A stretch of 20,498 bases of DNA, taken from positions 1 through 20,498 of IMG/VR virus record IMGVR_UViG_3300032360_000064. One strand, 5' to 3'. The notes beneath the pieces are model-generated. The model saw only the letters and a list, made by a program, of their open reading frames with translations. It was not told where the DNA came from and did not search any database. The DNA is from a virus. The position numbers and the translations under genes are program-made. Shown in pieces: positions 2,447-19,435 of the stretch; the stretch's first letter is position 1, and every line of letters starts with the position of its first letter.

Positions 2447-2599
2447 ATGGGTCGCGAACATTCATGCCCAGTCCCCCAAGGCTTCGAATGCGTAGTCGGA
2501 ACGCTGTGGCCCTCTAATCCGACACAAAACTGGCGCACAACGCGCCATCTATGCCCCTGCGGCTGTCATCTGCCGCCAGGAACCAAAAAGGAGAAATGA
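2447..2599 (+). CDS. Cysteine-rich small protein (50 aa)
   Basis: It starts at ATG 2447 after GTGAGGTG and ends at TGA 2597-2599, overlapping the start of the GP88-like gene. The sequence contains single cysteines near residues 7 and 15 and a tight HLCPCGCHLPPG cluster near the C-terminus. Cysteine and histidine spacing suggests metal binding. It is rich in proline and arginine and has no hydrophobic span. No family is recognised. The gene is short enough that translation should be confirmed. Confidence 0.6.
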   Translation: MGREHSCPVPQGFECVVGTLWPSNPTQNWRTTRHLCPCGCHLPPGTKKEK

Positions 2600-3411
2600 T
2601 GAGAAGAGCACAAGTAATGCTTAACCGATACTCCAAACGGGTCGGAGGAGGTGCAACCCCATACCTGTTCACCCGACAGAAAGACAGCGCCAAACTGGCA
2701 CACAACGCAGACGTGACCGACTACTACGAACAGATCGTCTGCTACATGCTGCCCCACACGATGGCCCGAAAGGTATGGCTAGAGGCGACAGGGACGCCTG
2801 CCCCGTGGAAATGGCGCAACATATGCCCCCACTCCACGCCAGGATGCCGAGCAGCGTGCCTCGTTCACTCAGGGAGGCTAGGCAAGGACCATGCTAAGCG
2901 TGCCATGCTGGCACGCACCGCCCTCTACAATGCCCACCCCAAACTATTCTGGGAACAAGTCAGCCATGAGATCGCCGTTCACCAGAAACGTGTCGAAGAC
3001 AAAGGCAAGAGGCTGGTTGTGCGGCTCGACGGGACCAGCCAGATCAACATTTGGGAGACAGCCCCCGAAATAGTCAAACACTTCGAAGGGGTAATCTTCC
3101 AAGACTACGTCAAGGGGCCGTACAAGACTGAATGGGCAGCCCCCAACCGATACCAAGTAGCGTCAGGGACCGAACGAGACACCGAGGTCACGATCAGGGG
3201 GCGCGGCAACATCGTGTTCCCCGTGGACGTGAAGAAGGGCGACCCGTTGCCTGAGCGTTTCCTGGGCCGTCGCACACTCGACGGCGACAAGCATGACCTC
3301 AGGTTCTTTGACCGACAGGGAGACTATGCGGTCCTTGTCAGAGTCAAAGGTTCGAAGCGTGACACGCACGGTTTCATTCGCGACATAGACAAGGAGCTAA
3401 CAAATGTGTGA
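2599..3411 (+). CDS. GP88-family phage protein (270 aa)
   Basis: The central part reads ICPHSTPGCRAACLVHSG at residues 75-92, followed by an alanine-rich helix, a hP.lFweqvshEI-type segment and VRLDGTSQINIWE. These are hallmarks of the GP88 family (named after a mycobacteriophage gene product), whose function is not established. Cys76, Cys83 and Cys87, with nearby histidines, could bind a metal or an Fe-S cluster; that is inference. ATG 2599 is preferred over the adjacent ATG 2596 because GGAG then sits five bases upstream rather than two. A frame open from 2551 lacks a good ribosome site. The gene overlaps the next by 8 nt. This is the largest protein of the accessory block. Confidence 0.78.
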   Translation: MRRAQVMLNRYSKRVGGGATPYLFTRQKDSAKLAHNADVTDYYEQIVCYMLPHTMARKVWLEATGTPAPWKWRNICPHSTPGCRAACLVHSGRLGKDHAKRAMLARTALYNAHPKLFWEQVSHEIAVHQKRVEDKGKRLVVRLDGTSQINIWETAPEIVKHFEGVIFQDYVKGPYKTEWAAPNRYQVASGTERDTEVTIRGRGNIVFPVDVKKGDPLPERFLGRRTLDGDKHDLRFFDRQGDYAVLVRVKGSKRDTHGFIRDIDKELTNV

Positions 3412-4741: not shown

Positions 4742-5114
4742 ACCAACCCCTTTCAGCCCCTACAACGGCTGCATCAAAGAAATGAATCAAACGGTCTGGC
4801 CCGAACTCTGCCGAGAGTTTGAGAAAGCCCGAGATGAGGCTGTCGCTTTCCGCTGGAACGACAGGGTGCAACGCATCAAGAACCTCGCTACCACCATCGA
4901 AACGATGGAGAAGATGATCGCACTGCTCCACTACGAGAAGCGTCAAACAATCCACGAGTTCGTGTTCTTCGGAGAGCGCGGCACAGCGTCACGACTGGCC
5001 CGTGAACTGAACATTTCCCGACAGCGAGTCTCGGACGTTTCACAGAAAGCAGCGTACGAACGGCTAGCTGGGATGCACCCTCTTCAAGAAAAGGTTGCGT
5101 CCGAGGTACAGTAA
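4734..5114 (+). CDS. Helix-turn-helix DNA-binding protein (126 aa)
   Basis: The C-terminal third contains GTASRLARELNISRQRVSDV (about residues 83-102 of this frame). It has the A..LA..L.IS.QRVS pattern of a recognition-helix HTH like those in sigma region 4 or small phage regulators. The N-terminal part is a long charged helix (CREFEKARDEAVAFRWNDRV) that may mediate dimerisation. ATG 4734 or the adjacent GTG 4731 may be used; both overlap the previous stop. The gene directly precedes the structured non-coding segment 5115-5265, so it is a natural candidate to regulate the downstream replication operon. That is positional inference. Confidence 0.68.
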   Translation: MDEPTPFSPYNGCIKEMNQTVWPELCREFEKARDEAVAFRWNDRVQRIKNLATTIETMEKMIALLHYEKRQTIHEFVFFGERGTASRLARELNISRQRVSDVSQKAAYERLAGMHPLQEKVASEVQ

Positions 5115-5193
5115 CGTTACAGTGGGGGAGGGGGGCCTCCAAGCCCCCCTCCCCCCCAGTACCAGTACAGAGTTGTGGATGGCTCTTGTACTG
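5111..5193 (+). other. Hairpin and CAGTAC-repeat cluster (possible operator or origin)
   Basis: Part of the only long non-coding gap on the rightward arm (5115-5265). It holds a perfect 10-bp palindrome GTAACGTTAC at 5111-5120. A perfect 13-bp GC-only-but-one stem follows: GGGGGAGGGGGGC at 5124-5136 with its complement at 5143-5155 and loop CTCCAA. Next are tandem CAGTAC copies at 5157-5162 and 5163-5168, and an inverted GTACTG at 5188-5193. AGTACA 5164-5169 also pairs with TGTACT 5187-5192. No T-run follows the GC-rich stem, so it is not a standard intrinsic terminator. Short iterated motifs plus hairpins before replication genes could be operator sites or an origin. Confidence 0.42.
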
Positions 5194-5201
5194 CAAGAAC
5201 G

Positions 5202-5261
5202 GTATGGAGGGGATGGTTTTTGTTCTCCTTTCCCATCCCCTCCATACTCGTCTAAAGGAGA
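5202..5261 (+). promoter_or_regulatory. Leader hairpin with anti-Shine-Dalgarno loop
   Basis: A perfect 15-bp stem is formed by GTATGGAGGGGATGG (5202-5216) and its reverse complement (5233-5247), with a 16-nt loop. The loop contains TCTCCTTT (5224-5231), the exact complement of AAAGGAGA (5254-5261), which is the ribosome binding site of the nuclease gene starting at 5266. Loop-to-ribosome-site pairing could mask translation of the replication operon. The six-base linker is short for a full 15-bp stem, so partial opening of the stem or pairing in trans would be needed. Base pairing is seen; regulation is inferred. Confidence 0.45.
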
Positions 5262-5265
5262 CAAC

Positions 5266-6051
5266 ATGATAGAACTGAATCTTCGCCAATCTTGGATTGG
5301 CACGTTCCTGCGGTGCCCTGAGCAGGCACGTCAGGAACGACTGAAACTTGTACGGCAACTAGAGTCCAGCGACATGCTGCGCGGTAATGCCGTTCATTAC
5401 TCCATCGAACAAGCAGGCGCTCAGAAACTCGCAGGGCGCGAAGTTGAGCTAGACATGATGCTCAACGCCGCAGACCGCTACATAGCCGACCACGCCCACG
5501 AGGTCGAGGTCTGGCGAACCGAGGTAGGCCCGTTGACCGACGTTGTGCGGGCCAACGTAGAATGCTGGCACAACGAACTAAACCCGATCCTGTTCCCCAA
5601 GCCCGACGGCATCGAACGCATGTTCATCAAGAGCATGGGGGTCCGAGAGTACGACGGTCATCCCCCCGTCAAACTCAACCTTGTTGGCACCGCCGACTGG
5701 ATAGACGAGACAGGCATCATTTGGGACTGGAAGAACCCGAGCCGCCACTACCAAGCTTGGGAGAAGAAACGGTGGGATATCCAATCGCACGCCTACACAT
5801 GGGCGCATGGCCTCGACCAGTTCAACCTGGCAGTCATGTCAAAGGGAGAGCTACAAATCATTGAGATCCCCCGCAGCGCAGAAGAGAAATCTGCGTTTGT
5901 TGATCTTTGCTGGAGTATTGTGCCTACAATGCTTTCAGATGCAGATTCCTGGCCGCAACGCTGGGAAGGCTGGCACTGCTCACCAAAATGGTGCCCAGTG
6001 TGGCAAGCAGGACGCTGCCGAGGCGAACACCTCGGCCAAGACCCTTGGTAA
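5266..6051 (+). CDS. Cas4/RecB-like PD-(D/E)XK exonuclease with probable Fe-S cluster (261 aa)
   Basis: ATG 5266 follows AAAGGAGACAAC; longer frames from 5095 would cross the structured leader. The N-terminus has SWIGTFLRCPEQAR, typical of the start of PDDEXK_1/Cas4-type nucleases. LRGNAVHYSIEQ supplies the metal-binding His44; GTADWID supplies Asp144; IIWDWKN supplies Asp154 and Lys156; and QSHAYTWA carries the family's late Gln/Tyr motif. Cys17 and three C-terminal cysteines (C238, C243, C251 in CSPKWCPVWQAGRC) match the four-cysteine Fe-S cluster of Cas4 and AddB. It is probably a ssDNA or dsDNA exonuclease used in phage replication or recombination. No CRISPR genes are nearby, so a CRISPR role is not suggested. 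It heads the operon that also holds helicase and primase. Confidence 0.85.
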   Translation: MIELNLRQSWIGTFLRCPEQARQERLKLVRQLESSDMLRGNAVHYSIEQAGAQKLAGREVELDMMLNAADRYIADHAHEVEVWRTEVGPLTDVVRANVECWHNELNPILFPKPDGIERMFIKSMGVREYDGHPPVKLNLVGTADWIDETGIIWDWKNPSRHYQAWEKKRWDIQSHAYTWAHGLDQFNLAVMSKGELQIIEIPRSAEEKSAFVDLCWSIVPTMLSDADSWPQRWEGWHCSPKWCPVWQAGRCRGEHLGQDPW

Positions 6052-6073: not shown

Positions 6074-6808
6074 ATGAGTAAAGTAACAGTGACCTTCGCA
6101 CAGAAGGTCAGCGAGGCTCCGTACGAAACGGCAGACTACTCGTTGATGATTGAGCAGGAATTCGATGAACTATCGGACCCCGTTCAGATCGCCAACGATC
6201 TGTTTGCCCAGGTTAAGAGCGAAGTGCTAAAGCAGGCAGGCTGCGAATATGACCTGAGCCAAGATGGCCTCGTCATGCGGAGGTTGCAAACAAGCGTTCG
6301 GGGAAGTTCTGCTCCTCAAGCCAGCGCTCCCGCAGCAACGGCCCCGAGTGTCCCGACAGGTCCGACAGCTAACTCAGTAGCTCAGTCGTCCACTTCAGCC
6401 CCGACACCATCGGGAGCGAAGATGACTGGCCGCGTGTACCCACGCACCGAGTTCTCTGTCGGCAAGGACGCCGACAAGAAGCAGCTTGCTTTCAACATCC
6501 TGGCATTCCACCCCGCCGAATGGGACGGAGGGGTCAAGGCATATCAGGTCAAAGAGAAAGCCGACGGCACCACCGACACCACCCCGAAGGGAACCAACTA
6601 CCCCAACTTCTCTATCTCCACCACAGCGCTGGGGATGGCAGGCGTTAACGTCGAACGAGACATGGGTGTTTGGATCAACGAAGGCGACAGCAATGTGCCG
6701 CTGAAAGTTTGGGATGCTCTCAACGGGCAAACCCAAGCCGATGCCGTTGAATGGGACTGGACAACCCGCCGTCAGGAACTACAAGCCTTCGCATACAAGA
6801 AGGTCTGA
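6074..6808 (+). CDS. Hypothetical two-domain protein, possible ssDNA-binding protein (244 aa)
   Basis: ATG 6074 follows GGTAAAGGGA; the longer frame from 5807 lies inside the nuclease gene. The N-terminal domain (about 1-72) begins VTVTFAQKVSEAPYETADYS and has a DPVQIANDLFAQVKSEVLKQ helix, a layout I associate with a poorly characterised phage domain. A flexible linker rich in Ala, Ser, Pro and Thr follows (about 75-118). The C-terminal domain is beta-rich and aromatic (NILAFHPAEWDGGVKAYQVK and later NYPNFSISTTALG). Its place between an exonuclease and a helicase, plus the two-domain layout, makes a ssDNA-binding role plausible. No OB-fold signature is decisive and the acidic tail of typical SSBs is absent. 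Confidence 0.75.
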   Translation: MSKVTVTFAQKVSEAPYETADYSLMIEQEFDELSDPVQIANDLFAQVKSEVLKQAGCEYDLSQDGLVMRRLQTSVRGSSAPQASAPAATAPSVPTGPTANSVAQSSTSAPTPSGAKMTGRVYPRTEFSVGKDADKKQLAFNILAFHPAEWDGGVKAYQVKEKADGTTDTTPKGTNYPNFSISTTALGMAGVNVERDMGVWINEGDSNVPLKVWDALNGQTQADAVEWDWTTRRQELQAFAYKKV

Positions 6809-7785
6809 TGGAACAGGGCCAACCAGCCCTGACCGAAGATGAGATCAGCGCCCGCCTAGCGGGCGTTGATCTCTCTCTGGGGGCAGAGAAGACATACAAA
6901 TGGTTCACCCCGACAGGGGACGCCGTTGACCGATGGATGCAGTACGCAAAGGGATCAGAAGACTGTTTCTTTCTGGGGTTAGAAGAGATCGACCAGCGAA
7001 TGCGCGGCGTATGGCCGTCAGATGTGCTCGTCGTCACAGGCAGAGCACACAGCGGCAAATCCGCAGTGCTGCTCTCCAGCCTGGCATACAACCTCCGAGA
7101 AGACCCAGGCTTCCACGGGGTGATCTTCACCCCCGACGAACCAGAAGTGCTGGTAGTAGCGAAGCTCTACGCTCTGCTCTACCAACGCAACCTGGCCGAA
7201 GTCGAAGAAGCGCTACGGTTAGAAGACCCTCTCTACATAAATGAGATCATGGAGGCCAAAGAGCGCTACCTAGATCGACTCAAGATATTTCCCAACGCAC
7301 TCAAGTTCCCAGACATGAGCCAAGCGATGAGGGAATGCGAGGACTACTGGCAAGCCAAACCAAAGTTTGTCATGGTCGACTTCCTAGAGCAGCTACCTCA
7401 AGCGTCAGGCTACGAAGGCGTATCGAAGGTTCTGAAGAACCTGAAGGAATGGACAGAAAACGAGAACATGCCAGTCGGGCTGGTACACCAGTCAGGCAAA
7501 GGGTCCACCCGAGGTTCTAGCCGAGGGATGGACGACGGCAAATTCAACGCAGACGAATACGCCATCCTTCAACTCAACGTGTTCCGTAAACGAGATGACC
7601 CGAAACTCACCGACAAAGAACGGCGCATCCATTCGGTATCCATCAGCCTTGACCTATGCAAGAACAAACGTCCACCATGCCAAATCACATCGCCACCGAT
7701 TGATTACTTCATGGACCCGACATGCGGCCTAGTCCGTTCGTACTACGAGTCGGATATCCCAGGTGATGAACGATGGATCGAATAG
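6808..7785 (+). CDS. DnaB-type (SF4) replicative helicase ATPase core (325 aa)
   Basis: Residues 78-85 are GRAHSGKS, a Walker A motif. KFVMVDFLEQL (about 186-196) is the Walker B strand with Asp191. VGLVHQSGKGSTRGSSRG (about 223-240) fits DnaB/RecA motif H3/L2 with its glutamine/histidine sensor. GLEEIDQRMRGVWPSDVLVV before Walker A matches the start of the RecA core in DnaB-like helicases. At 325 residues it is shorter than bacterial DnaB (about 450-470) and lacks a clear N-terminal primase-interacting domain. It likely unwinds DNA as a hexamer at the phage fork. It starts with TGATG overlap to the previous gene and overlaps the primase by 13 nt, suggesting coupled synthesis. Confidence 0.85.
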   Translation: MEQGQPALTEDEISARLAGVDLSLGAEKTYKWFTPTGDAVDRWMQYAKGSEDCFFLGLEEIDQRMRGVWPSDVLVVTGRAHSGKSAVLLSSLAYNLREDPGFHGVIFTPDEPEVLVVAKLYALLYQRNLAEVEEALRLEDPLYINEIMEAKERYLDRLKIFPNALKFPDMSQAMRECEDYWQAKPKFVMVDFLEQLPQASGYEGVSKVLKNLKEWTENENMPVGLVHQSGKGSTRGSSRGMDDGKFNADEYAILQLNVFRKRDDPKLTDKERRIHSVSISLDLCKNKRPPCQITSPPIDYFMDPTCGLVRSYYESDIPGDERWIE

Positions 7786-8660
7786 AGCAATTCGCGGCCC
7801 TTCACTCTGGCGGGTTCGTCGCTGACGTATCCGAAGGCGTAAAACCCTTTCTAATAAATGAAGAAACGGCGATAGCCTCAGGCGAAGAATACGAAGCCCT
7901 CATCGAGCAACACTTGTACGGCGAAGAAGCCCTCGGTGTGTACCCGCTGATGGAACGCAACGGACTGTTCTGGGTCAACTGGGTAGCCGTCGACCTAGAC
8001 GAAGGCGACATCTCCGAACCCCACGCAGATAACCTCGTAGCGTTGCTAGAGAAACTATCCATCCGTTCATGGAAAGAACCATCACGGTCCAAAGGGTTCC
8101 ACGTCTGGGTCTACCTAGAACGGCCACTACAAGCAGCGATGGCACGCAACTGCATGATCGGCGCATGCCGACTCATAGAAACCCCCATCAAAGAGGTATA
8201 CCCCAAACAGGTAAAGCTAGGCCCAGGCAAGATCGGCAACTGCCTCAGGCTCCCTTACGCTGCGACCCGCAACACGGGTCGGCAACAGATGGGCGACCTC
8301 ACCTGGGAAGAGTTCACCGACACTGCGTGGGCTACACGCTGCGCCCCCGAGCACTTCGAACGGCTCCACGCCCTCTACATACAAACAGAACCAGCCAAAG
8401 CAGCGTTCTCGTATAGCGGCACAAACGACAGCGAAGACTTCACAGGGCGAGCCAGAACGATCTGGGAAAACCCGTTTGAGAAAGACCGCAGCAGCACCTT
8501 GTACCGCTTCGCTGCATCGTTACTTGAACGCGACTACTCTGTTGAGGCTACAATCTATTGGGTAACTCAACTCGATGAACGGGTAGGGAAGTTCAAGGAC
8601 CGTGAAGACGGTCCTCTACAGATTGAACGTATGGTCGAGTCGGCCCTAAGGAGCCTCTAA
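7773..8660 (+). CDS. Archaeo-eukaryotic-type (AEP) primase (295 aa)
   Basis: WVAVDLDEGD (about 70-79) provides the paired metal-binding Asp74 and Asp76. SKGFHVWVYLERPLQ (about 106-120) provides the S.G.H motif with His110. KLGPGKIGNCLRLPY (about 148-162) matches the third conserved block of phage and plasmid AEP/PrimPol-type primases. The C-terminal 90 residues are helical (SSTLYRFAASLLERDYSVE...) and resemble the small helical cap of such enzymes. It would make primers, or act as a primase-polymerase, with the helicase, whose gene it overlaps by 13 nt. No zinc-binding DnaG-type domain is present. It lacks a fused helicase, unlike many PrimPol replicases. Confidence 0.78.
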   Translation: MDRIEQFAALHSGGFVADVSEGVKPFLINEETAIASGEEYEALIEQHLYGEEALGVYPLMERNGLFWVNWVAVDLDEGDISEPHADNLVALLEKLSIRSWKEPSRSKGFHVWVYLERPLQAAMARNCMIGACRLIETPIKEVYPKQVKLGPGKIGNCLRLPYAATRNTGRQQMGDLTWEEFTDTAWATRCAPEHFERLHALYIQTEPAKAAFSYSGTNDSEDFTGRARTIWENPFEKDRSSTLYRFAASLLERDYSVEATIYWVTQLDERVGKFKDREDGPLQIERMVESALRSL

Positions 8661-9014
8661 ATGCCGTCCAAAGGTAAGCAATACCGATTCTCTATCCCGC
8701 ACCGACCCAAAGCAAAGGAACGACCTCGGTTCTCGATGAAAGGCGGCTACGCCTACACGAGCGCCAAGACCCGCACTTTCGAAGATCTCGTCAAAACGTA
8801 TTACAAAGGCCCAAAGTTCGAAGGCCCAGTATCTCTCGCTCTAACATTCTCACCGACACGCGTCACCGTCTGTGTAACAGAGATGCCCGACACCGAACCA
8901 AGCAAGCTCCGAGGCGACGTAGACAACTACGTCAAATCGGTGAGCGACGCACTCAACGGGTTGGCGTACGACGACGACAAACAAATCCATAAGCTCTCAG
9001 GGCGCAAACAATGA
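8661..9014 (+). CDS. rusA: RusA-family Holliday junction resolvase (117 aa)
   Basis: The sequence has the family pattern. KAKERPRFSMKGGYAYTSAK near residues 17-36 corresponds to the RPR......Y....Y block. LRGDVDNYVKSVSDALNG (83-100) carries Asp86 and Asp88. LAYDDDKQI carries the third catalytic aspartate around 104-106. Length matches RusA (about 120). The enzyme cuts four-way DNA junctions, clearing recombination intermediates before packaging. It starts immediately after the primase stop with AAGGAG seven bases upstream, and overlaps the next gene by 4 nt. Confidence 0.88.
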   Translation: MPSKGKQYRFSIPHRPKAKERPRFSMKGGYAYTSAKTRTFEDLVKTYYKGPKFEGPVSLALTFSPTRVTVCVTEMPDTEPSKLRGDVDNYVKSVSDALNGLAYDDDKQIHKLSGRKQ

Positions 9015-10705: not shown

Positions 10706-11464
10706 TTACAGGAACATCCTCGCCCAAGTGTTCTTGCCGACAACACCATCGGCTTTCAAACCGCTCCGCTGTTGGTACGAGCGTACGGCAGAAGCCGTGA
10801 GCCTGCCATAGACGCCGTCCACAGGCCCAGCGTCATGCCCCAAACCGTTCAGCTTCGCCTGCACGAGCCGCACAGCAGGCCCCCTAGACCTGCGTCGCCT
10901 CGATAGCGGGCGACGCGCTACAGCCGCTCCCAGGCCCGCTACATACGCTTTGATGCCGTCCCAGTCCTGCTCAGGGGCCGTATCAGCCTTCAATGGCATA
11001 CCGTCCTGCAACCAATGATACAACGACGTGCCAGGGCACGACGTAGAAGCCAAATCCCTATGGCCCTTTACCCAAAGCCCGCGGCCATAACGGCCCTGAA
11101 TATCAGAAACAAGCCACTTAATAGAATCCAACGCACGCTGCGAAACCTCTCCAGAACCCCAACCCGTGTAACAGATCGACTCGGTACGGCTGTTCCAACC
11201 CCGAGTAGCTCCGCCAACAATACCGCCACCACGGCCCTCATAGATGACGCCATCGTCATCAACAAGCCAGTTGTAAGCAATAGCGTTCCAACCACGGCTA
11301 TCCATGTGGTACCGCTCAAAGCCCTTCACAGTAAACGGCCCAGTCGTAGCGCTCTTAACCCCCGAATGGTGCAGCACAACACCGACCACCCCGCGAAGTT
11401 TCGAGAACGCCCGTTTAGGGGGACGTGCGTTCCAACCATCTCTGCTAACTATCGTTCTACCCAT
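10706..11464 (-). CDS. Endolysin: N-acetylmuramoyl-L-alanine amidase with peptidoglycan-binding domain (252 aa)
   Basis: Residues 1-155 form an Amidase_2/PGRP domain. VVLHHSG holds the zinc ligand among His32/His33, and WVKGHRDLASTSCPG holds His135 and Cys143, the other two zinc ligands of T7-lysozyme-like amidases. YNWLVDDDGVIYEGRG is the family's central strand pair. A basic linker (RRPLSRRRRSRG, about 184-195) leads to a PG_binding_1 domain (about 196-252) with VRLVQAKLNGLG and GPVDGVYGRLTASAVRSYQQ. It cleaves the bond between the glycan and the stem peptide. No signal peptide is present, so export depends on a holin. The start at 11464 overlaps the giant gene by 8 nt. Confidence 0.92.
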   Translation of the reverse strand: MGRTIVSRDGWNARPPKRAFSKLRGVVGVVLHHSGVKSATTGPFTVKGFERYHMDSRGWNAIAYNWLVDDDGVIYEGRGGGIVGGATRGWNSRTESICYTGWGSGEVSQRALDSIKWLVSDIQGRYGRGLWVKGHRDLASTSCPGTSLYHWLQDGMPLKADTAPEQDWDGIKAYVAGLGAAVARRPLSRRRRSRGPAVRLVQAKLNGLGHDAGPVDGVYGRLTASAVRSYQQRSGLKADGVVGKNTWARMFL

Positions 11465-14400
11465 AACGTCCTGCTAACGCTTGTTGCCTCCGCTTTTCGG
11501 CGGAGTCTTTATACATCTGTCTGATCTTTTCGTTCCGCTGCTCTTTCGGCGTGTTCACCCTGAACCCCAACCCCAACACAAAGTTCAAAGCAGTAGCGAT
11601 CTGCTTCATATCCGCAGAAGACTGCCACTTCGGGTCAACGTTCGGGTCCAAACGGCTGGCATTAGCGAACACAGGAACAAACTGTTCCACCATATACGCA
11701 GCTTTGTCCGTCATCAGAAGCCGCCCATTAGCGTCTTGCTGCAAGTTCCCCGAAGCCTGCAATACTTGTTGCAACACAGGGATACTAGCCCATTTAGGTG
11801 CAGGTTTTAGATCATTAGAGAACGGAACCTGATTAAACGTCCGCACATCCATCGCCCACTCGGCAGGGAACTTGTAATGAGGGATAGCGGACTCCATAAA
11901 GGGCCGCGAAGCGTTCAGAATGTAATCTTGGATGCCAGCGTTCGGGCCAGCATCAGCGGCCTTAGCCCAGTTCGCCAGATCAGCGAACGGCAACGAAGGC
12001 AACGTGTAAACCCTCATCCCGCCCCACTTGAAAGGCAACCTGATACCCATGTTCTCACCGAAGTAAGCAGGTTCCGTTCCCTCCGCAGGCGAAAGATGTT
12101 CCATCTCAGCTTTGAAATTGGTGATGCGGTTCCAAGCCTTCGGGTTACGGCCCACCGATTCAATCAACACAGGCAGCGCACGACGCTGCCAAGTCCAGAA
12201 CGGAATAACTTGCTTAGCTCTACGTTCAAACTCGGTCAGATCAGTGTAATCAAAATGGTATTTGTAAACCTTGGTCATAGCCGTGTCGAGACTCTCGCCG
12301 CCCATCATCGCGTGATGGGCAAGGGAACCTCGGGCCATAAACTCTACGTCAGTGTTCCAGCCACGAATAGCAGAGAACCCCTTGAAATCGGCGCTCCACG
12401 GTGCCCACTTTCCTGCCTTGAAACCAGACCGAGCGCCTTTACCCTCGACCAACTGCCCAGCCTTATCAAGCCCAGACGTAATATCCACACCGCGACCGCC
12501 TGTACCAGACGCAATACCCGATGCGTACCACTTCTGGAACGTCACCAATTCGTCAACAGGTACCTTCGTCCCTCCAGCATAGATACCCAACTTCAGGTTG
12601 AAACCGCCCCTGTCAATCAGGATCTTCAAACCAGCGTTCACATCACCTTTGCCAAGACGACGGGCCTTGTCTCGGATCTTCACAACACGAGGCATCATGT
12701 GCAGCGGCATCTCAGCAAGCTGATTATTCATCCATGCAGCGCCAAGCATGTTACGCATCACGAACCCAGGGGTACCAACCGCCTGAGCCTTCCACCAATT
12801 CTGCACTCGTGCATAACTCTTTAAGAAATTGCTCATTTCTTGCATGTCAGCCGTCCGAGCAACAGCCTCAAACATTTCAGAGAAGTGCCGACCCAACTCT
12901 GCCGCCCTAGCAGGCGTCATAGGAGTATCAACAGGAGCCACAAACGATTTCCCGTGAAGCTTCGACTTCGTCAGATTCCCCACCCTGCCGTACGAAGATT
13001 CAATACCAAAGTTATGAAGAACATCCTTCAGTACCCCTTCAGCACCCTCCATGTACTTGTCGACAAACGCAGCGTTACCCTGCCCCTTAGCAACCGCTCT
13101 AAACGCAGCGACAGGGTCATCAGCGATCTCCAAAGCAGCAGCCGTATCGCCCTTCCTGGCGGCAGCTTCAAGCAGCTTCCGCTGCTGCATCAACGAATCA
13201 GGCCCGTTACTCAACACGCTACGAATCAGCGTGTTGCGGTTCCCTACCTCTTTAACAGTTTGAGCAATCGTTTGGATGTCTGCAACCATCGCCTCGATCT
13301 CGCCTTCAAGGGCAGCTTTGTTCTGAGATAGTTGATCCATTGTTTCACGGACCTTCGGCGGGGTACGACTACGAACTTGAGGTACGGCCCCTTCAAGCTG
13401 TTTGACCTTTATAAAGGTTATATCTCGCCAGGCTGGTTCAACACCCGTGACACGAAACTTGCCTCCACCGACTACCTCTCTAAACCCACCACCCCTATCT
13501 GGCCTCCATCGTGATTCATCCATCACCATGAACTGGACGCGATCTCCGCTTTCGATCTGGTAGATAACTTTCTTCGTCCCAGGAGCAAGCGAGTGAGTCT
13601 GCTCAGAGAACCCTGCGGCATCGTCCACGTCCCCGCCCCAAGCCCGAGGCTTCATACTTATTTCGTCTCCAACCGCAGGAATCTCAGAAACAACTGCGCC
13701 GCGGTGGAACACCCCTTCAGCAGCCATCGGGTCGTTCTGTGCCAAAGTCGCTCTTATGTAAGCGGCTGTCTGAGACTCAGCCGTGTCTTTAACAGCCGCT
13801 CCCGCCACCTGAGCATCGAACTCTTTAAGAACTGGTCCGATGTTGCTATGATCCGCCCATACACGGAACACTGAACTGTGAACACCTCGTGGGTTTGGGT
13901 GCTGCATAAATGGGCGAGGGTCATAGTCCTTAGGATCAAGCTCCGCACGAAACCCCAAACGCTGATCCAAAAACGAATCAACAAGAACATCAAGATCACT
14001 CTTATACTCAGCCCGCAAAAGCGTAGTCAACGCATCAGCATCATCCAACGACTGACCAACAGCATCCATCAGATGCACCCCAGGAGTCAGATCCCCCAAA
14101 CGCTGCTCCAAAATGCGGGTATTCTCCATCGTCTCTATCAACGCAGCCTGCGCCCGACCCGCAGGAGAATCATCAAACGTAGCCAAAACCTTGTGCATAA
14201 TTTCAACACGGTCCTCGCCCAACAACGTACGCAATGTGCGGCGATCACCCAACCCAGCAAGAGGCTGAGAGTTCCAACGAACCTCCCAACCAAGGTTGCC
14301 TCCCTTCCAATCGACCCGCACCACACGGCCATCAGCAGGCAAATCCATAAACGTCGAAGCGACCCGTCTGAAATCATCACCCGCAGCCCACAAGCCAAGC

Positions 14401-17321
14401 AGGGTTTCCTTCAACGCAACCTGAGCCTCCTGCATCAAAGCAGGATCACCCAACTTAGCTAACCCCCGACCAGAGACAAGCGTCGGATCAAACGCCTCCA
14501 AATTGCCCCGAACGTTCTTAGCAATATCAGCAACCTCATCAAACAATTCGTCTAACTGAAGAGCCTGCTCTTCTAGCTGCGTACGAATCGTCGCAGGACG
14601 GAACCTCTTAACAGCATCATCACCAGCCTGCGCCCCAAGATCCCACTGATTCAACACCGCACCAATCTGGTTACGTTGCATCTGCAAACGCCCAGCAGTC
14701 AACTGCAACTGATGAAAGAACTCCGTCGCATCAGCCAACGCAGCCAACCGCCGCTCCCCATCAGCAGCCATCTCACGAATCTTCCGACCCTGAGCCTGCG
14801 TAAACGGCCCCTCTATAGCGTCACGCCAACCAGCATCATCCAACAAAGCACGAGCATCAGCCGACAAACCAGTGTAATAATTGCCGTCAGACGCCGCACG
14901 CAATACCTGACCAAACGAATCAATCTGAACCTGAAGATCAGCGACCGACCCAGCCAACTGGCCGTCAGTGCTATTCAGCCACTTCGCAGCAAACTCGGGA
15001 GTAATACCATCAGAAGCAGCAATATCGGCCAAAATGTTAGCGACCTCATCAGGATCTCCGCTCCCAGCATCCAACTGGGCGCGCAACACATCAAGCTGCT
15101 CCCCATTTTTGACAAGCTTGCCGTTCAAGACAGCGATGTTCTCCGCTATATGCCCCTGAGCAAACCTCGTACCAGGCAACATCCAACCGTCTCGTACAGC
15201 CAAATCCAGAATCGTCTGAGAACGGATATGAGAACTCATCACATTGATGTACCGCGGCAACACCATCGAAGCATCAGAAGAAAACGTAAACGCCTTCTTC
15301 TTAGCCCCCTTCGAAAGAGTCGACGGAGAAGCCTTGTCTACAATGGCTTGCATCTGGCGCAGCACATTCATACCCGCCTCATCAACGTTCTTAATGACCT
15401 CGCCTGCGTGCAAGTTCGTCATCACGTTCGTTGTGTTATCCCCGTAACGGACACCGTTAGCCAACTCTGCATTCATGACCGCTTCGAACTCTGCGGTCAA
15501 CGCCTTCTCATCAGGAACCAAGATCCCGCCACGGGCAGGATCTTTAAGATTCGCCTTCGCAAGCTGCTCAATACGATCAATGTCAGCCGCATAAGCTTTG
15601 CTTTTTGGGGTCGGCTTTAGCACCCGATTCTTTCGGATTTCAAGGAGCTTTACCCCGATATGCTTAGGCTCCATCAAATGCCGAGACTGAGTCGGGTTAC
15701 CCGTCAACGGGATACCGCCGTCATCAAACAATGGCACAGTCTTATTTCTGCCAGCCCGACCAGTAGGCATGTCGTCTCTGAATCGGGCGGCATACAAGAA
15801 CTCTTCTATCTCATGCGGGGGAATGCCAGCGCTCTCACCAGCCTTCTTCCACCAAGCCTTCGCTTGGTCGACCAACGGATCGACAGTCCTTGTGCCGTCT
15901 TTCGCTGTCACCACCCACCGAGAGAACGTAGGGTCCGACAACAACAAATCATCAGGGGTAGTCGCCGCATCAAACATCAATTCATCGAACTCGCTGCCGC
16001 TAACATTCGACTTCCGACCTTGCCTAACCAAGTTATCTAAGCCATCCGTCGACTCCTTATTCCACCTAAGACTCTTCAAAGTGCCCTGGTTCCCCATGCG
16101 TTCCACGCCCATCGCTAGGAGAGCCGCCTGAGAATCTTTGCCACGTCTCGCAGAGATTATTGCCGCCTGACTGTTGAGCCTCCCCAGCAGCCCCTTCGTT
16201 CCTTGCTCAGTTTCGGAAGCGGCACGACCAGCAATAAGCCCTGCCCTAGACGAATGGGTGACAGCCCTCCCGATCTGCGAAGTCATCAAAGAAAGACCTT
16301 TAGCAGAACCCGTCCGCAAAGTCTGCGTTGGAAGACCAACCGACAACGGCAACCGAGCAGCCTTACGAGCAGCCTGGTTCACCACCTCAGGAGAAGCCCC
16401 AATGATCCCTGGCGTTGGCGCTTTACCCATCATGCGCTGCACAACCAGCTTCTGATTAGCCGCTAACGTTAAATCAAACCCTGCGTCCGTCGCCCACGGT
16501 GCAGTCCCTAACTCCCTCACACGGCGTTTCGCAGCCGCCTTCTTAAGAGGCGGCAGAAGCGTCCCCAAAGGCCGCTCAACAACCCTCCGCGCTAGCCGCC
16601 CCGTTCCAGGCACAATAAACCTGATACCAGGCTGAATCCCAAGCGCCCGCATAGCTGCTGGTTCAGCAGCAGAAGCAGCAATAACACCTCTTGTGCGGAC
16701 AATGTCAAACACGTTGTCCATACTTCTGACTATTTCAGCCGCATCAGCACCCTTGCTCGCCTTCGCGGCCTTAGAAGCAGTAGCAGCAGCCAGAGCGATG
16801 TCTTGAACTTTCGACGCCCTAGCGATAAGGCCCACACCAGCTATGTACGTCAACGGATCTAAAGCGATATCTAATGCAAGACCAGCCGCAAACATGCCTG
16901 CGGGGGGAAGATCAACCCCCCAGTTCCGCAACAGATCGCTAGCCATCATGTTGTCTGTGAAAGCTTGGCTATACCAATCAGATATTGACGCGTCACCGCC
17001 CATAAACAAATCGGATGTCTCCTGAATGGTGGAAACCACCATTGCACGCATGGTGTCGAGGCCATCTAACGTTGGCCCAAGGATAGGAATATCGAATACC
17101 CCGCCGCCCTCACCCTCGACGCTGCGGACACCATGATACCCGTAAGGATTTGGGCGTATATAGTTAGCGTAAGGGATATTGACCGTTGCCGACAAATCCA
17201 GCCCCTTAACAGGGGTAAAGCTAGAATAGTCTAGCTTCTTAATAAGACCCGACATATCGGGAACCGTCGTCTCCCGAGGAGACGGTAAAGCGTTAACGAT
17301 GCTAGTTCGGTCGATAGCCAC
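11457..17321 (-). CDS. Giant virion protein, probable internal/ejection protein (1954 aa)
   Basis: One uninterrupted frame of nearly 6 kb. The N-terminus is polar; residues 141-167 are hydrophobic and contain LDIALDPLTYIAGVG, a motif I associate with phage internal virion and large polyvalent proteins. A long helical middle (about 600-1120) includes charged repeats such as NILADIAAS and coiled-coil-like stretches. About 1200-1300 looks like an ADP-ribosyltransferase fold (separate entry). Near the C-terminus, YHFDYTDLTEFERRAKQVIP and FWTW (about 1708) with RNPKAW resemble a conserved phage block (F.Y..LT.FER...IPF.TW). The protein probably travels in the capsid and enters the host with the DNA, like T7 gp16. 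No transglycosylase motif is visible. The exact role is inferred from size, neighbours and motifs. Confidence 0.8.
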   Translation of the reverse strand: MAIDRTSIVNALPSPRETTVPDMSGLIKKLDYSSFTPVKGLDLSATVNIPYANYIRPNPYGYHGVRSVEGEGGGVFDIPILGPTLDGLDTMRAMVVSTIQETSDLFMGGDASISDWYSQAFTDNMMASDLLRNWGVDLPPAGMFAAGLALDIALDPLTYIAGVGLIARASKVQDIALAAATASKAAKASKGADAAEIVRSMDNVFDIVRTRGVIAASAAEPAAMRALGIQPGIRFIVPGTGRLARRVVERPLGTLLPPLKKAAAKRRVRELGTAPWATDAGFDLTLAANQKLVVQRMMGKAPTPGIIGASPEVVNQAARKAARLPLSVGLPTQTLRTGSAKGLSLMTSQIGRAVTHSSRAGLIAGRAASETEQGTKGLLGRLNSQAAIISARRGKDSQAALLAMGVERMGNQGTLKSLRWNKESTDGLDNLVRQGRKSNVSGSEFDELMFDAATTPDDLLLSDPTFSRWVVTAKDGTRTVDPLVDQAKAWWKKAGESAGIPPHEIEEFLYAARFRDDMPTGRAGRNKTVPLFDDGGIPLTGNPTQSRHLMEPKHIGVKLLEIRKNRVLKPTPKSKAYAADIDRIEQLAKANLKDPARGGILVPDEKALTAEFEAVMNAELANGVRYGDNTTNVMTNLHAGEVIKNVDEAGMNVLRQMQAIVDKASPSTLSKGAKKKAFTFSSDASMVLPRYINVMSSHIRSQTILDLAVRDGWMLPGTRFAQGHIAENIAVLNGKLVKNGEQLDVLRAQLDAGSGDPDEVANILADIAASDGITPEFAAKWLNSTDGQLAGSVADLQVQIDSFGQVLRAASDGNYYTGLSADARALLDDAGWRDAIEGPFTQAQGRKIREMAADGERRLAALADATEFFHQLQLTAGRLQMQRNQIGAVLNQWDLGAQAGDDAVKRFRPATIRTQLEEQALQLDELFDEVADIAKNVRGNLEAFDPTLVSGRGLAKLGDPALMQEAQVALKETLLGLWAAGDDFRRVASTFMDLPADGRVVRVDWKGGNLGWEVRWNSQPLAGLGDRRTLRTLLGEDRVEIMHKVLATFDDSPAGRAQAALIETMENTRILEQRLGDLTPGVHLMDAVGQSLDDADALTTLLRAEYKSDLDVLVDSFLDQRLGFRAELDPKDYDPRPFMQHPNPRGVHSSVFRVWADHSNIGPVLKEFDAQVAGAAVKDTAESQTAAYIRATLAQNDPMAAEGVFHRGAVVSEIPAVGDEISMKPRAWGGDVDDAAGFSEQTHSLAPGTKKVIYQIESGDRVQFMVMDESRWRPDRGGGFREVVGGGKFRVTGVEPAWRDITFIKVKQLEGAVPQVRSRTPPKVRETMDQLSQNKAALEGEIEAMVADIQTIAQTVKEVGNRNTLIRSVLSNGPDSLMQQRKLLEAAARKGDTAAALEIADDPVAAFRAVAKGQGNAAFVDKYMEGAEGVLKDVLHNFGIESSYGRVGNLTKSKLHGKSFVAPVDTPMTPARAAELGRHFSEMFEAVARTADMQEMSNFLKSYARVQNWWKAQAVGTPGFVMRNMLGAAWMNNQLAEMPLHMMPRVVKIRDKARRLGKGDVNAGLKILIDRGGFNLKLGIYAGGTKVPVDELVTFQKWYASGIASGTGGRGVDITSGLDKAGQLVEGKGARSGFKAGKWAPWSADFKGFSAIRGWNTDVEFMARGSLAHHAMMGGESLDTAMTKVYKYHFDYTDLTEFERRAKQVIPFWTWQRRALPVLIESVGRNPKAWNRITNFKAEMEHLSPAEGTEPAYFGENMGIRLPFKWGGMRVYTLPSLPFADLANWAKAADAGPNAGIQDYILNASRPFMESAIPHYKFPAEWAMDVRTFNQVPFSNDLKPAPKWASIPVLQQVLQASGNLQQDANGRLLMTDKAAYMVEQFVPVFANASRLDPNVDPKWQSSADMKQIATALNFVLGLGFRVNTPKEQRNEKIRQMYKDSAEKRRQQALAGRYG
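13394..13760 (-). other. ADP-ribosyltransferase-like segment within the giant virion protein
   Basis: Residues about 1190-1310 follow the strand order of ADP-ribosyltransferase (ART) exoenzyme domains. GVFHRG has Arg1207 at the place of the NAD-binding arginine. VGDEISMKPRAW with DDAAGFS follows, where ARTs have an STS strand and an A..F helix. Then comes KKVIYQIESG, and RGGGFREVVGGGKFRVTGVE has Glu1282 at the place of the catalytic glutamate. The STS motif is not intact (AWGG region), and the first glutamate of ExE is Phe1280. It may therefore be inactive, altered in specificity, or only a structural relative. Confidence 0.42.
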
Positions 17322-17327
17322 GATAAT

Positions 17328-18983
17328 CTAGTCGACCCAGCGGCCAATAGATTCCGACCAGTCTTGCACCGTGTCCCCTACAATGTCCACTCCTAACTTA
17401 AAGTTATCGACGGACCACTTCGTCGGGTTCGCCCAATCAGGCAACGAACCGTGGCCGCCGCCGCCCGCCTCTTCAGGTAGCTCTAGCTGGTATTCAAGTA
17501 ACGACAAAGCACTAATAGCTTCGGGCGAGTTTGCGCCAAACTGCTCCACCGCCCGCTGATACCCCTTAGCCAGAGTGTCATAATCATCAATGCCGAGATT
17601 GCCAGTAGGAGTATCAATCCTCGGTTCGTTAAGGTCAGAATCAAGGAACTCGTCGCCATATTCGCTCTCGGATATAGCCAGCCACTCGCTCTCAGTGAGA
17701 GGCAGACCCTCTTTGTGCTTCTGTATAGCCGCTAGCGAAACCGCACCGACCTGAATAGCACGCTCCTTAGCGGCGCGACTCTCAGCAGCCCGAGCAGCCG
17801 CAGCCTGAGCAGCTTGTGCCGCCTGCAACACCTGAACATCAATGTTAGTCATCGCCATCTGGTACGCCTGACCAGCCTGCCGCTCAGCATCCGAAATAGC
17901 CTGCAACGCCAAAGCATCATCAATCAAACCCTGATTACGCATCTGATCGACAGCCTGCAACGCAAACGACAAATCCTCACCAATGCCAAACATGGCAGCA
18001 GCAGAAGCCTGATCGTTAGCGTTCGACGCAAACTCGGCAGAAGCCGTCGCAACCATGTCCATCTGGTTCAACAAGTTCGCAGAAGACATATTCTGCGAAT
18101 GCAACATCGCAGTAGTCTCAGACTGTGCATCTCCAGCAAAATCGCCAGGAGCAATACCCATCATCTCCAACCGCGAACCAGCAGTCGAAACATCAACACC
18201 GTTAGCCCGCAACGCATCATCAAACTGTGTTTGCTGACGGGTTAGCTCCTCAGCTTTACGCAACTGTCGCGAAGCAGTAGCCGCTGCCTCCGATTCAGCA
18301 CGAGAAGAATCAAGTTCCGTTAAGAAATCTTCACGGCCCTCAGCCGTGTCCTCAGCGAACTGCTCATCGGAAGCCAAACCCTCTTCGCGAAGAACGCCCA
18401 ACTCTTCTACCAAATCGCGGTTCTCTTCGAAGCCTTCCAGTTGGCTACCGAACAGATCGGTCTGGCCCTTCCGCAGCAGGTCGTAGATGCTTAAAGCAGG
18501 AGCGCGCCCGCCTCCGCCTCCGCCTCTGCCTCTGTCGTCATCGTGCGGCCACCCCGAATCTTCTCTTTCCTTATACGCATTCTTCCTGCGCCATTCTGCT
18601 CGTTGCTGAGCAGCCGAAGGCTGACTGAAATCGTAATCCGAGACGTAGCCGCCGCCAGGCCCAGCAAACGGGTGGTTTGACTGACCCATCCTCGGCGGGC
18701 CGTCAACGTTCGAATAACCAAGATCAGGAGAATCAGGATTCCAACCACGCTTCGAATAAGAATTAGGCAACAAACCCATATCATTTGCTTGGCCTTGAGC
18801 GGCCAACAAATCCTGCCAACGAGGAACATACCCCTCCTGTGCAGTAGGAACAACAGAACCACCGTATTCAGGCTGCGTCACAGGCCGTACCGAGTTAGCC
18901 AGTTCCATAGCCCGAACGATGTCATCGTAACTTAAAGTAGTTTCAGTTCTGGTTGTTTGACCGTTGATTACTTCAGCCATCAT
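17328..18983 (-). CDS. Probable internal virion protein, coiled-coil and Gly-rich (551 aa)
   Basis: No direct family match recognised. The N-terminal 150 residues are polar and proline/glycine-rich. A glycine tract (RGRGGGGGGR, 151-160) follows. A long acidic helical region (about 170-430) is rich in Glu, Gln and Ala, including LLNQMDMVATASAEF and an alanine/glutamine stretch VLQAAQAAQAAAARAAE. The C-terminus has an amphipathic end (FKLGVDIVGDTVQDWSESIG). Size, composition and place before the giant gene recall T7 gp15-type core proteins. Start is ATG 18983 (or 18980), overlapping the previous gene's stop. The six bases to the giant gene suggest one transcript. Confidence 0.72.
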   Translation of the reverse strand: MMAEVINGQTTRTETTLSYDDIVRAMELANSVRPVTQPEYGGSVVPTAQEGYVPRWQDLLAAQGQANDMGLLPNSYSKRGWNPDSPDLGYSNVDGPPRMGQSNHPFAGPGGGYVSDYDFSQPSAAQQRAEWRRKNAYKEREDSGWPHDDDRGRGGGGGGRAPALSIYDLLRKGQTDLFGSQLEGFEENRDLVEELGVLREEGLASDEQFAEDTAEGREDFLTELDSSRAESEAAATASRQLRKAEELTRQQTQFDDALRANGVDVSTAGSRLEMMGIAPGDFAGDAQSETTAMLHSQNMSSANLLNQMDMVATASAEFASNANDQASAAAMFGIGEDLSFALQAVDQMRNQGLIDDALALQAISDAERQAGQAYQMAMTNIDVQVLQAAQAAQAAAARAAESRAAKERAIQVGAVSLAAIQKHKEGLPLTESEWLAISESEYGDEFLDSDLNEPRIDTPTGNLGIDDYDTLAKGYQRAVEQFGANSPEAISALSLLEYQLELPEEAGGGGHGSLPDWANPTKWSVDNFKLGVDIVGDTVQDWSESIGRWVD

Positions 18984-19435
18984 GCACCCCGCATCTGATC
19001 GCCGTACAAACCAGCCACCAAATCCTGATAATCCTGAGAAGCAAGACCCTGCCTCAACTCAGACAAATTGCCCATATCCAACGAATCTTGCAACCAAGAA
19101 TCCATAATCGACTGCCCAAAATCCTCACGCATACGGTTCTGCCCCCGCAACACATTCGCAGCAGTCTCACGACCACCCCGAACAAACGAACCGCTATCAA
19201 TCATCCCGCGCTGGTTATACATGCCAGGCAACGCCCGATACGCCTGCTCAGCATTACGGTTCAAATCAATACGGTTACGAGTGTTCTGGCGCGACATTTT
19301 ATCGCGCCCGTACTGCCTGTTGATAAGGTTCTTCTGCACCTGAGTAGACGCGTTTTGCACGTCTGCTGCCGAGGTAGAACCCATACCGCCGAAAACGGCA
19401 GAACCAATGTCTTGATAACTTGGGGAAAACGCCAT
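18980..19435 (-). CDS. Probable small internal virion protein (151 aa)
   Basis: The sequence begins MAFSPSYQDIGSAVFGGMGS and then is a Gln/Asn/Arg-rich helix (NASTQVQKNLINRQYGRDKM and on). ALPGMYNQRGMIDSGSF and a further helical part to DLVAGLYGDQMRGA follow. The MYNQRGM-DSGSF region resembles a turn seen in small phage virion proteins upstream of larger core proteins; this is recollection, not a search. GTAGGAGCTT precedes the start. Its place before the 551- and 1954-residue proteins parallels T7 gp14. The C-terminus overlaps the next start by 4 nt. Confidence 0.7.
   Translation of the reverse strand: MAFSPSYQDIGSAVFGGMGSTSAADVQNASTQVQKNLINRQYGRDKMSRQNTRNRIDLNRNAEQAYRALPGMYNQRGMIDSGSFVRGGRETAANVLRGQNRMREDFGQSIMDSWLQDSLDMGNLSELRQGLASQDYQDLVAGLYGDQMRGA

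What the first reader, a model, noticed from the sequence alone, without database searches (positions are those of the whole stretch)
13394..13760. ADP-ribosyltransferase-like fold buried in a 1954-residue virion protein
Seen: around residues 1200-1295 of the giant protein, FHRG (Arg1207), VGDEISMKPRAW...DDAAGFS and FREVVGGGKFRVTGVE (Glu1282) occur in the order and spacing of R-S-E class ART domains. Known: ART domains occur in phage polyvalent and MuF-type proteins, and T4 injects ART enzymes with its DNA. Inference: this protein may deliver a host-modifying enzyme or its decayed remnant at infection. The STS motif is not intact and ExE is FxE, so activity is uncertain.
Basis: partly seen in the sequence, partly recalled or inferred. 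Interest (0 to 1): 0.66.

Follow-up and report, generated by a model that had tools for sequence, protein, structure and literature searches.

The report
Possible ADP-ribosyltransferase insert in phage protein
A giant protein that this phage probably injects with its DNA carries a clean extra block of about 195 residues, missing from its nearest relative, whose sequence faintly resembles a worn ADP-ribosyltransferase enzyme, but no search or structure prediction could confirm that.

Summary
New: they lie inside a discrete insert, residues ~1123-1317 (13371-13955). The closest relative (46-59% identical on either side) joins the flanks directly and lacks all of it; the insert has no match in any other family member examined. 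The gene order (~150 aa, ~420-550 aa, giant, endolysin) recurs in relatives and matches the podovirus ejection-protein operon (T7 gp14-gp15-gp16 layout), so injection is plausible though unproven. The ART reading is weakly supported. No Pfam, NCBIfam, PHROG or PDB match names it an ART; on a home-made ART HMM it scores about 1 bit where PF03496-type ARTs score 48-88 (T4 ModB and Alt also score only about 2). An end-to-end profile alignment gives z = 3.2-3.4 (16 of 4000 shuffles as good), with Arg1207 and Glu1282 in register. AlphaFold was inconclusive (pLDDT 34 alone, 50 with ART rows). STS is absent and ExE reads FxE. Verdict: a lineage-specific insert in an ejection-type protein, somewhat under even odds of being a diverged, probably impaired R-S-E ART. 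The concept is already known (T4 Alt, polyvalent proteins).

The parts
11457..17321 (-). Giant 1954-aa ORF, third gene of an ejection-protein-like operon
   Evidence: family of 38 further loci; conserved neighbourhood
13371..13955 (-). Discrete insert, residues ~1123-1317 (195 aa), absent from nearest relative L003, which joins ...DQRLKL to TRKSPAVRETM...
   Evidence: no relative of it in the other giant homologues by phmmer
13386..13739 (-). ART-like core, residues 1195-1312: strand with FHRG, then VIYQI, FREVV and KFRV elements
   Evidence: end-to-end profile alignment z = 3.2-3.4; no database profile hit
13701..13703 (-). Arg1207 codon, candidate R of R-S-E
13476..13478 (-). Glu1282 codon, candidate catalytic E; two residues before it is Phe1280 where ExE enzymes have Glu
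11952..12878 (-). Conserved C-terminal domain, residues 1482-1790, the signature of this giant-protein family (KYHFDY...IPFWTWQRR)
17328..18983 (-). 551-aa protein upstream (gp15-like position)
   Evidence: 53% identical over residues 162-448 to the matching gene in L003; size and position kept in relatives
18980..19435 (-). 151-aa protein (gp14-like position)
   Evidence: 58% identical in L003, weaker matches in L010, L030-L032
10706..11464 (-). Amidase_2 + PG_binding_1 endolysin just downstream
   Evidence: PF01510, PF01471; syntenic in most relatives

Best explanation
Residues ~1123-1317 are a self-contained module inserted into the variable central part of a giant podovirus-type ejection protein (T7 gp16-like position). 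The most likely single identity is a strongly diverged ADP-ribosyltransferase-type (R-S-E) domain: Arg1207 on the first core strand and Glu1282 on the ExE strand are kept, while the STS element and the first Glu of ExE are lost. It would leave the virion with the rest of the protein at DNA entry and meet NAD or a host target in the cell, either with altered or weak activity (NAD binding or hydrolysis rather than classical arginine ADP-ribosylation) or as a decayed remnant. Shown: the insert, its absence in the nearest relative, the gene order, and the weak motif resemblance. Inferred: virion location, ejection, the ART fold, any chemistry.
For: Clean insert boundaries against L003. The insert is about as long (195 aa) as the PF03496 model (196 positions). 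End-to-end ART profile score 21 bits, z = 3.2-3.4, best place in the 1954-aa protein. Trimmed to the core, four MAFFT strategies all register Arg1207 with the ART Arg and Glu1282 with the ART Glu, with VIYQI and KFRV in step. Motif order found in 2.4% of shuffles. The alignment-guided model has three entries of the ART Vis as its top PDB matches, though weak and circular (E 0.1-0.2). Ejection-operon gene order conserved. Precedent for virion-borne ARTs: T4 Alt, polyvalent and MuF-ART proteins (PMC5512222, PMC9503650); MuF-type ARTs found here in Pseudomonas, Xanthomonas and Enterococcus phages.
Against: No match to any ART model in Pfam, NCBIfam or PHROGs, nor to any PDB chain, while virion ARTs in the same library score 25-65 bits. 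Home-made ART HMM: -0.4 to 1.5 bits versus 18-88 for left-out ARTs, except T4 ModB and Alt at about 2. hhalign to the MuF-ART profile aligns only 17 residues, probability 0.4%. With the whole insert, MAFFT put a different Arg (IRAT) at the ART Arg. Models low-confidence: pLDDT 34 and 50; TM to Vis only 0.27-0.30. STS and the first E of ExE absent. A few unrelated natural segments score as high in the profile test.
Confidence: 0.43

Rival explanations
1. The insert is not an ART but an orphan beta-rich or structural domain (or a new cargo domain of another fold) in a fast-evolving mosaic region; the R/E motifs are coincidence.
For: All ART profile searches negative; ART-HMM score near zero; the whole central region of this protein family is hypervariable with unrelated inserts in relatives; a weak match to an uncharacterised phage family, phrog_12488 (E 0.007, residues 1219-1273), whose nature could not be found.
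Against: End-to-end ART alignment equalled by only 0.4% of shuffles and peaking exactly at this region; R, strand and E elements fall in the right order in a domain-sized insert.
Confidence: 0.4
2. The insert is an active ADP-ribosyltransferase injected at infection that modifies a host protein, as T4 Alt does.
For: Ejection-type gene order; Arg1207 and Glu1282 kept; literature precedent.
Against: STS missing, first Glu of ExE replaced by Phe, no profile support, no conservation data because no homologue carrying it was found. Departures from the canonical triad exist in working enzymes (RES family, PMC9503650), so loss of motifs alone does not exclude activity.
Confidence: 0.13
3. The insert is the ancestral state and L003 lost it by deletion, so it is an ordinary part of the protein and not a gained module.
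For: Only one close relative is available, so gain and loss cannot be polarised from that pair alone.
Against: No similarity to the insert in any other family member, including those with longer central regions.
Confidence: 0.04

Closest known systems
MuF-type ART minor head proteins (PF01129/PF03496 domains, e.g. Pamexvirus PaMx28, Bradleyvirinae phages, Enterococcus phage phiFL4A gp35)
   Same: Virion protein with an RG ... strand ... E-V-L ... F-R-V core; the window's core can be laid on it end to end
   Different: Those match Pfam ART models and keep STS and ExE; the window's insert matches none, lacks STS, has FxE, and sits in a gp16-like giant protein rather than a minor head protein
T4 Alt (virion-borne ART injected with DNA)
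   Same: Proposed role: enzyme carried in the head and delivered with DNA
   Different: No sequence match; Alt is a separate protein with known activity; here only motif-level resemblance
Polyvalent proteins with ART-PolyVal domains (Iyer et al. 2017, PMC5512222)
   Same: Very large multidomain protein encoded among virion genes with a candidate ART
   Different: PF18760 (H-Y-D clade) does not match the window; the window's motif would be of the R-S-E clade; other polyvalent hallmark domains not detected
T7 gp16 / P22 gp16 ejection proteins
   Same: Last and largest of three adjacent genes, mosaic domain content
   Different: No detectable sequence similarity to such families in PHROGs; 1954 aa is larger than the 609-1337 aa range given in PMC8954989

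Membership tests
R-S-E ADP-ribosyltransferase (PF03496 / PF01129) | Match to the family profile | tested here: not met
   No hit; virion-ART positive controls hit at 1e-5 to 1e-18
R-S-E ADP-ribosyltransferase (PF03496 / PF01129) | Arg on the first core strand ([aromatic]-R-G) | tested here: inconclusive
   FHRG, Arg1207, registers with the ART Arg when trimmed to the core but not with the whole insert
R-S-E ADP-ribosyltransferase (PF03496 / PF01129) | Ser-x-Ser (STS) strand | tested here: not met
   WGGD or FSEQ at that place, depending on register
R-S-E ADP-ribosyltransferase (PF03496 / PF01129) | ExE/QxE loop with catalytic Glu | tested here: not met
   F-R-E: second Glu (1282) present, first position is Phe1280
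R-S-E ADP-ribosyltransferase (PF03496 / PF01129) | ART fold (split beta-sheet with NAD cleft) | tested here: inconclusive
   pLDDT 34 alone and 50 with an ART-guided alignment; top PDB matches are the ART Vis but E 0.1, TM about 0.3
R-S-E ADP-ribosyltransferase (PF03496 / PF01129) | NAD-dependent ADP-ribosyl transfer or NAD hydrolysis | not testable with these tools
   needs protein
ART-PolyVal (PF18760, H-Y-D clade) | Profile match | tested here: not met
Podovirus ejection protein (T7 gp16-like) | Third and largest gene of the gp14-gp15-gp16 type operon | tested here: met
   150/454/1742 aa in L003, 144/418/2149 in L030; endolysin after it in most relatives; layout from PMC8954989
Podovirus ejection protein (T7 gp16-like) | Sequence similarity to known gp16 families | tested here: not met
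   PHROG scan gives no internal-virion-protein hit
Podovirus ejection protein (T7 gp16-like) | Presence in the virion and ejection into the cell | not testable with these tools
   needs virion proteomics

The most novel reading that the evidence does not exclude
The central region of this giant ejection-protein family is a swappable cargo slot: an R-S-E-type ART in the window's phage, a different (H-Y-D polyvalent-type) ART candidate in relatives L030-L035, other inserts elsewhere, so that related phages inject different NAD-using enzymes from the same carrier.
Probability: 0.22. Interest if true: 0.6.

Novelty: new member of a known kind. Interest (0 to 1): 0.36.

Why it matters
Phages that inject enzymes with their DNA act on the host before any gene is expressed. 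If the insert is an ART, it would add a podovirus-type ejection protein to the known virion ART carriers (T4 Alt, MuF and polyvalent proteins) and point to a place in a large, unannotated protein family where effectors are gained and lost. If not, it is still a cleanly delimited presence/absence module in an ejection-type protein.

Tried and rejected
Insert as query against viral contigs (three scans, one of them with an ART-mixed alignment), phages, plasmids and 296 genomes of the class of an Acidimicrobiaceae MAG: no relative; the last gave only scattered E 0.007-0.1 pieces. PF03496, PF18760 and phrog_12488 were searched in relatives and other genomes: only phrog_12488 rang in the window, and its members could not be found to say what it is. 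Pfam hits Rv2632c-like and Mod(r) are below cut-off and judged chance. Alignment A4 was discarded because I had typed letters into one row that are not in the source; A6 and A8 misaligned and were discarded; A7 had no stretch conserved enough to search with. The single-sequence model and its PDB matches are meaningless at pLDDT 34; the viral-library matches likewise. The PDB search with A11 only confirms that the 14 virion-ART rows are ARTs; it says nothing about the window. No direct repeats flanking the insert were found that would suggest how it arrived. GC3 of the insert (0.49) equals the lowest value of equal-sized stretches elsewhere in the gene (0.49-0.64): slight, not decisive.

Full report
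WHAT IS THERE. The window is an entire 20,498-base virus record. The other strand has only short overlapping ORFs there.

THE INSERT. A scan with the C-terminal domain (residues ~1480-1790) brought 38 related loci. The closest, L003, aligns at 46% over residues 1-1122 and 59% over 1318-1949, and skips the segment between...DSMLDQRLKL is followed at once by TRKSPAVRETM... where the window has ...DSFLDQRLGF-[insert]-SRTPPKVRETM. phmmer of the insert finds nothing in the other family members (some of these are fragments). A second scan for closer relatives returned L003's contig alone. So residues ~1123-1317 (13371-13955) are a presence/absence module of 195 aa; gain in the window's lineage is the simpler reading, but one close relative cannot prove it. 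The ART-like core (1195-1312) is wholly inside it.

CONTEXT. Upstream in the same direction lie a 551-aa and a 151-aa gene, downstream an amidase endolysin. The same order and sizes recur: 150/454/1742 aa in L003, 144/418/2149 in L030, 144/435/2168 in L031. This is the order described for podovirus ejection proteins (gp14-like, gp15-like, larger gp16-like; PMC8954989), and that review stresses swapping of enzymatic domains between ejection proteins. No PHROG links the protein to gp16 by sequence, so this is an argument from position. In the annotated phage collection the whole protein matches one record only, an environmental podovirus, over 15% of its length at 27.6% identity; the C-terminal domain alone finds a few more, weakly.

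IS IT AN ART? Database tests are negative: Pfam, NCBIfam, PHROGs and PDB sequences, and PF03496 and PF18760 against the record. Virion ARTs found here by tblastn in Pseudomonas, Xanthomonas, Variovorax and Enterococcus phages do hit PF01129/PF03496, so the library can see virion ARTs. A home-made HMM of known ARTs gave left-out PF03496-type ARTs 48-88 bits and ModA 18, but ModB and Alt only about 2 and the window about 1. The insert is therefore not a recognisable member of that clade, yet the test has no power for ARTs as divergent as Alt. hhalign recovered only FREVV..KFRV.

A more sensitive end-to-end alignment to an ART profile gave 21.1 bits against a shuffle mean of 6.0 (sd 4.8): z = 3.16, 16 of 4000 as good. 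Against 2809 natural segments of related proteins z = 3.39, 5 as good. Along the 1954 aa the best place is the segment starting at residue ~1193. The alignment reads EGVFHRGAVV / GDEIS...AW-GGDVDDAAGF / VIYQIESGDRV / GGFREVV--GGGKFRVTGVE, with Arg1207 and Glu1282 on the ART Arg and Glu; four MAFFT strategies agree when the core is used, but not when the whole insert is used. The resemblance is above chance and short of homology: left-out PF03496-type ARTs score 70-108 bits in the same test.

STRUCTURE. Alone, AlphaFold2 gave pLDDT 34. With 14 virion ARTs as alignment rows, pLDDT rose to 50, pTM 0.47, still low. Foldseek's three best PDB matches were the ART Vis (E 0.1-0.2, probability 0.30-0.44, TM about 0.3). 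Because ART rows were supplied, this is circular and counts for little.

MECHANISM. Most likely (0.43) a diverged, probably impaired R-S-E ART carried into the cell within an ejection protein. The missing STS and the Phe in place of the first Glu of ExE argue against classical arginine ADP-ribosylation. A rival of nearly equal weight (0.40): an unrelated orphan domain. An active host-modifying ART gets 0.13.

A RELATED LEAD. In relatives L030-L035 and L082 the same variable central region holds another segment; in L030-L033 and L035 it reads HG[FTM] ... then a Tyr/Ser-containing strand (YA.DP....GF.V...NPV.[FY]GG in most) ... G[YH]DSI[IL]Y.....W..I.L.P. This is the H (strand 1), Y (strand 2), D (strand 5) order described for polyvalent-protein ARTs (PMC5512222). 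PF18760 did not hit and no structure was run. If both readings hold, the region is a cargo slot for different ART clades; both are motif-level only.

NOVELTY. Virion-borne ARTs in large phage proteins are an established theme. The finding would be a new member of that kind at most. Interest is moderate because the insert is clean and testable and the carrier family is unannotated.

Noticed in passing
L030:5586-6818, L031, L032, L033, L035, L082 (relatives' giant proteins): Central region with H / Y / D motifs in the order described for polyvalent-protein ART domains (HGF...YAGRDP...NPVVFGG...GYDSIIYSG in L030). No Pfam, PHROG or PDB support.
   Followed up: partly
L036 residues 2736-2855, L037 residues 2818-2941 (giant proteins): Two distant relatives end in helix-hairpin-helix motifs (PF12836, E 7e-25 and 3e-23) that the window's protein lacks.
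   Followed up: no
window 2551-3411 +: GP88-family protein (PF17338, 7.7e-16).
   Followed up: no
window 7773-8660 +: Primase of the AEP-TOTE kind (PF22548, 1e-16), next to a DnaB-like helicase (6751-7785), a RusA nuclease (8661-9014) and a PD-(D/E)XK nuclease (5095-6051).
   Followed up: no
window 13503-13667 -: Weak match of the insert to phrog_12488, a phage family of unknown function (E 0.007 in PHROGs; 1.1e-4 for the record alone); its members could not be located.
   Followed up: partly
L042 (NHIM01000009.1): A 37.6-kb contig in an Acidimicrobiaceae MAG (TMED189) carries a phage of this family (46% identical in the C-terminal domain); a possible host hint, or a stray phage contig in the bin.
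   Followed up: no
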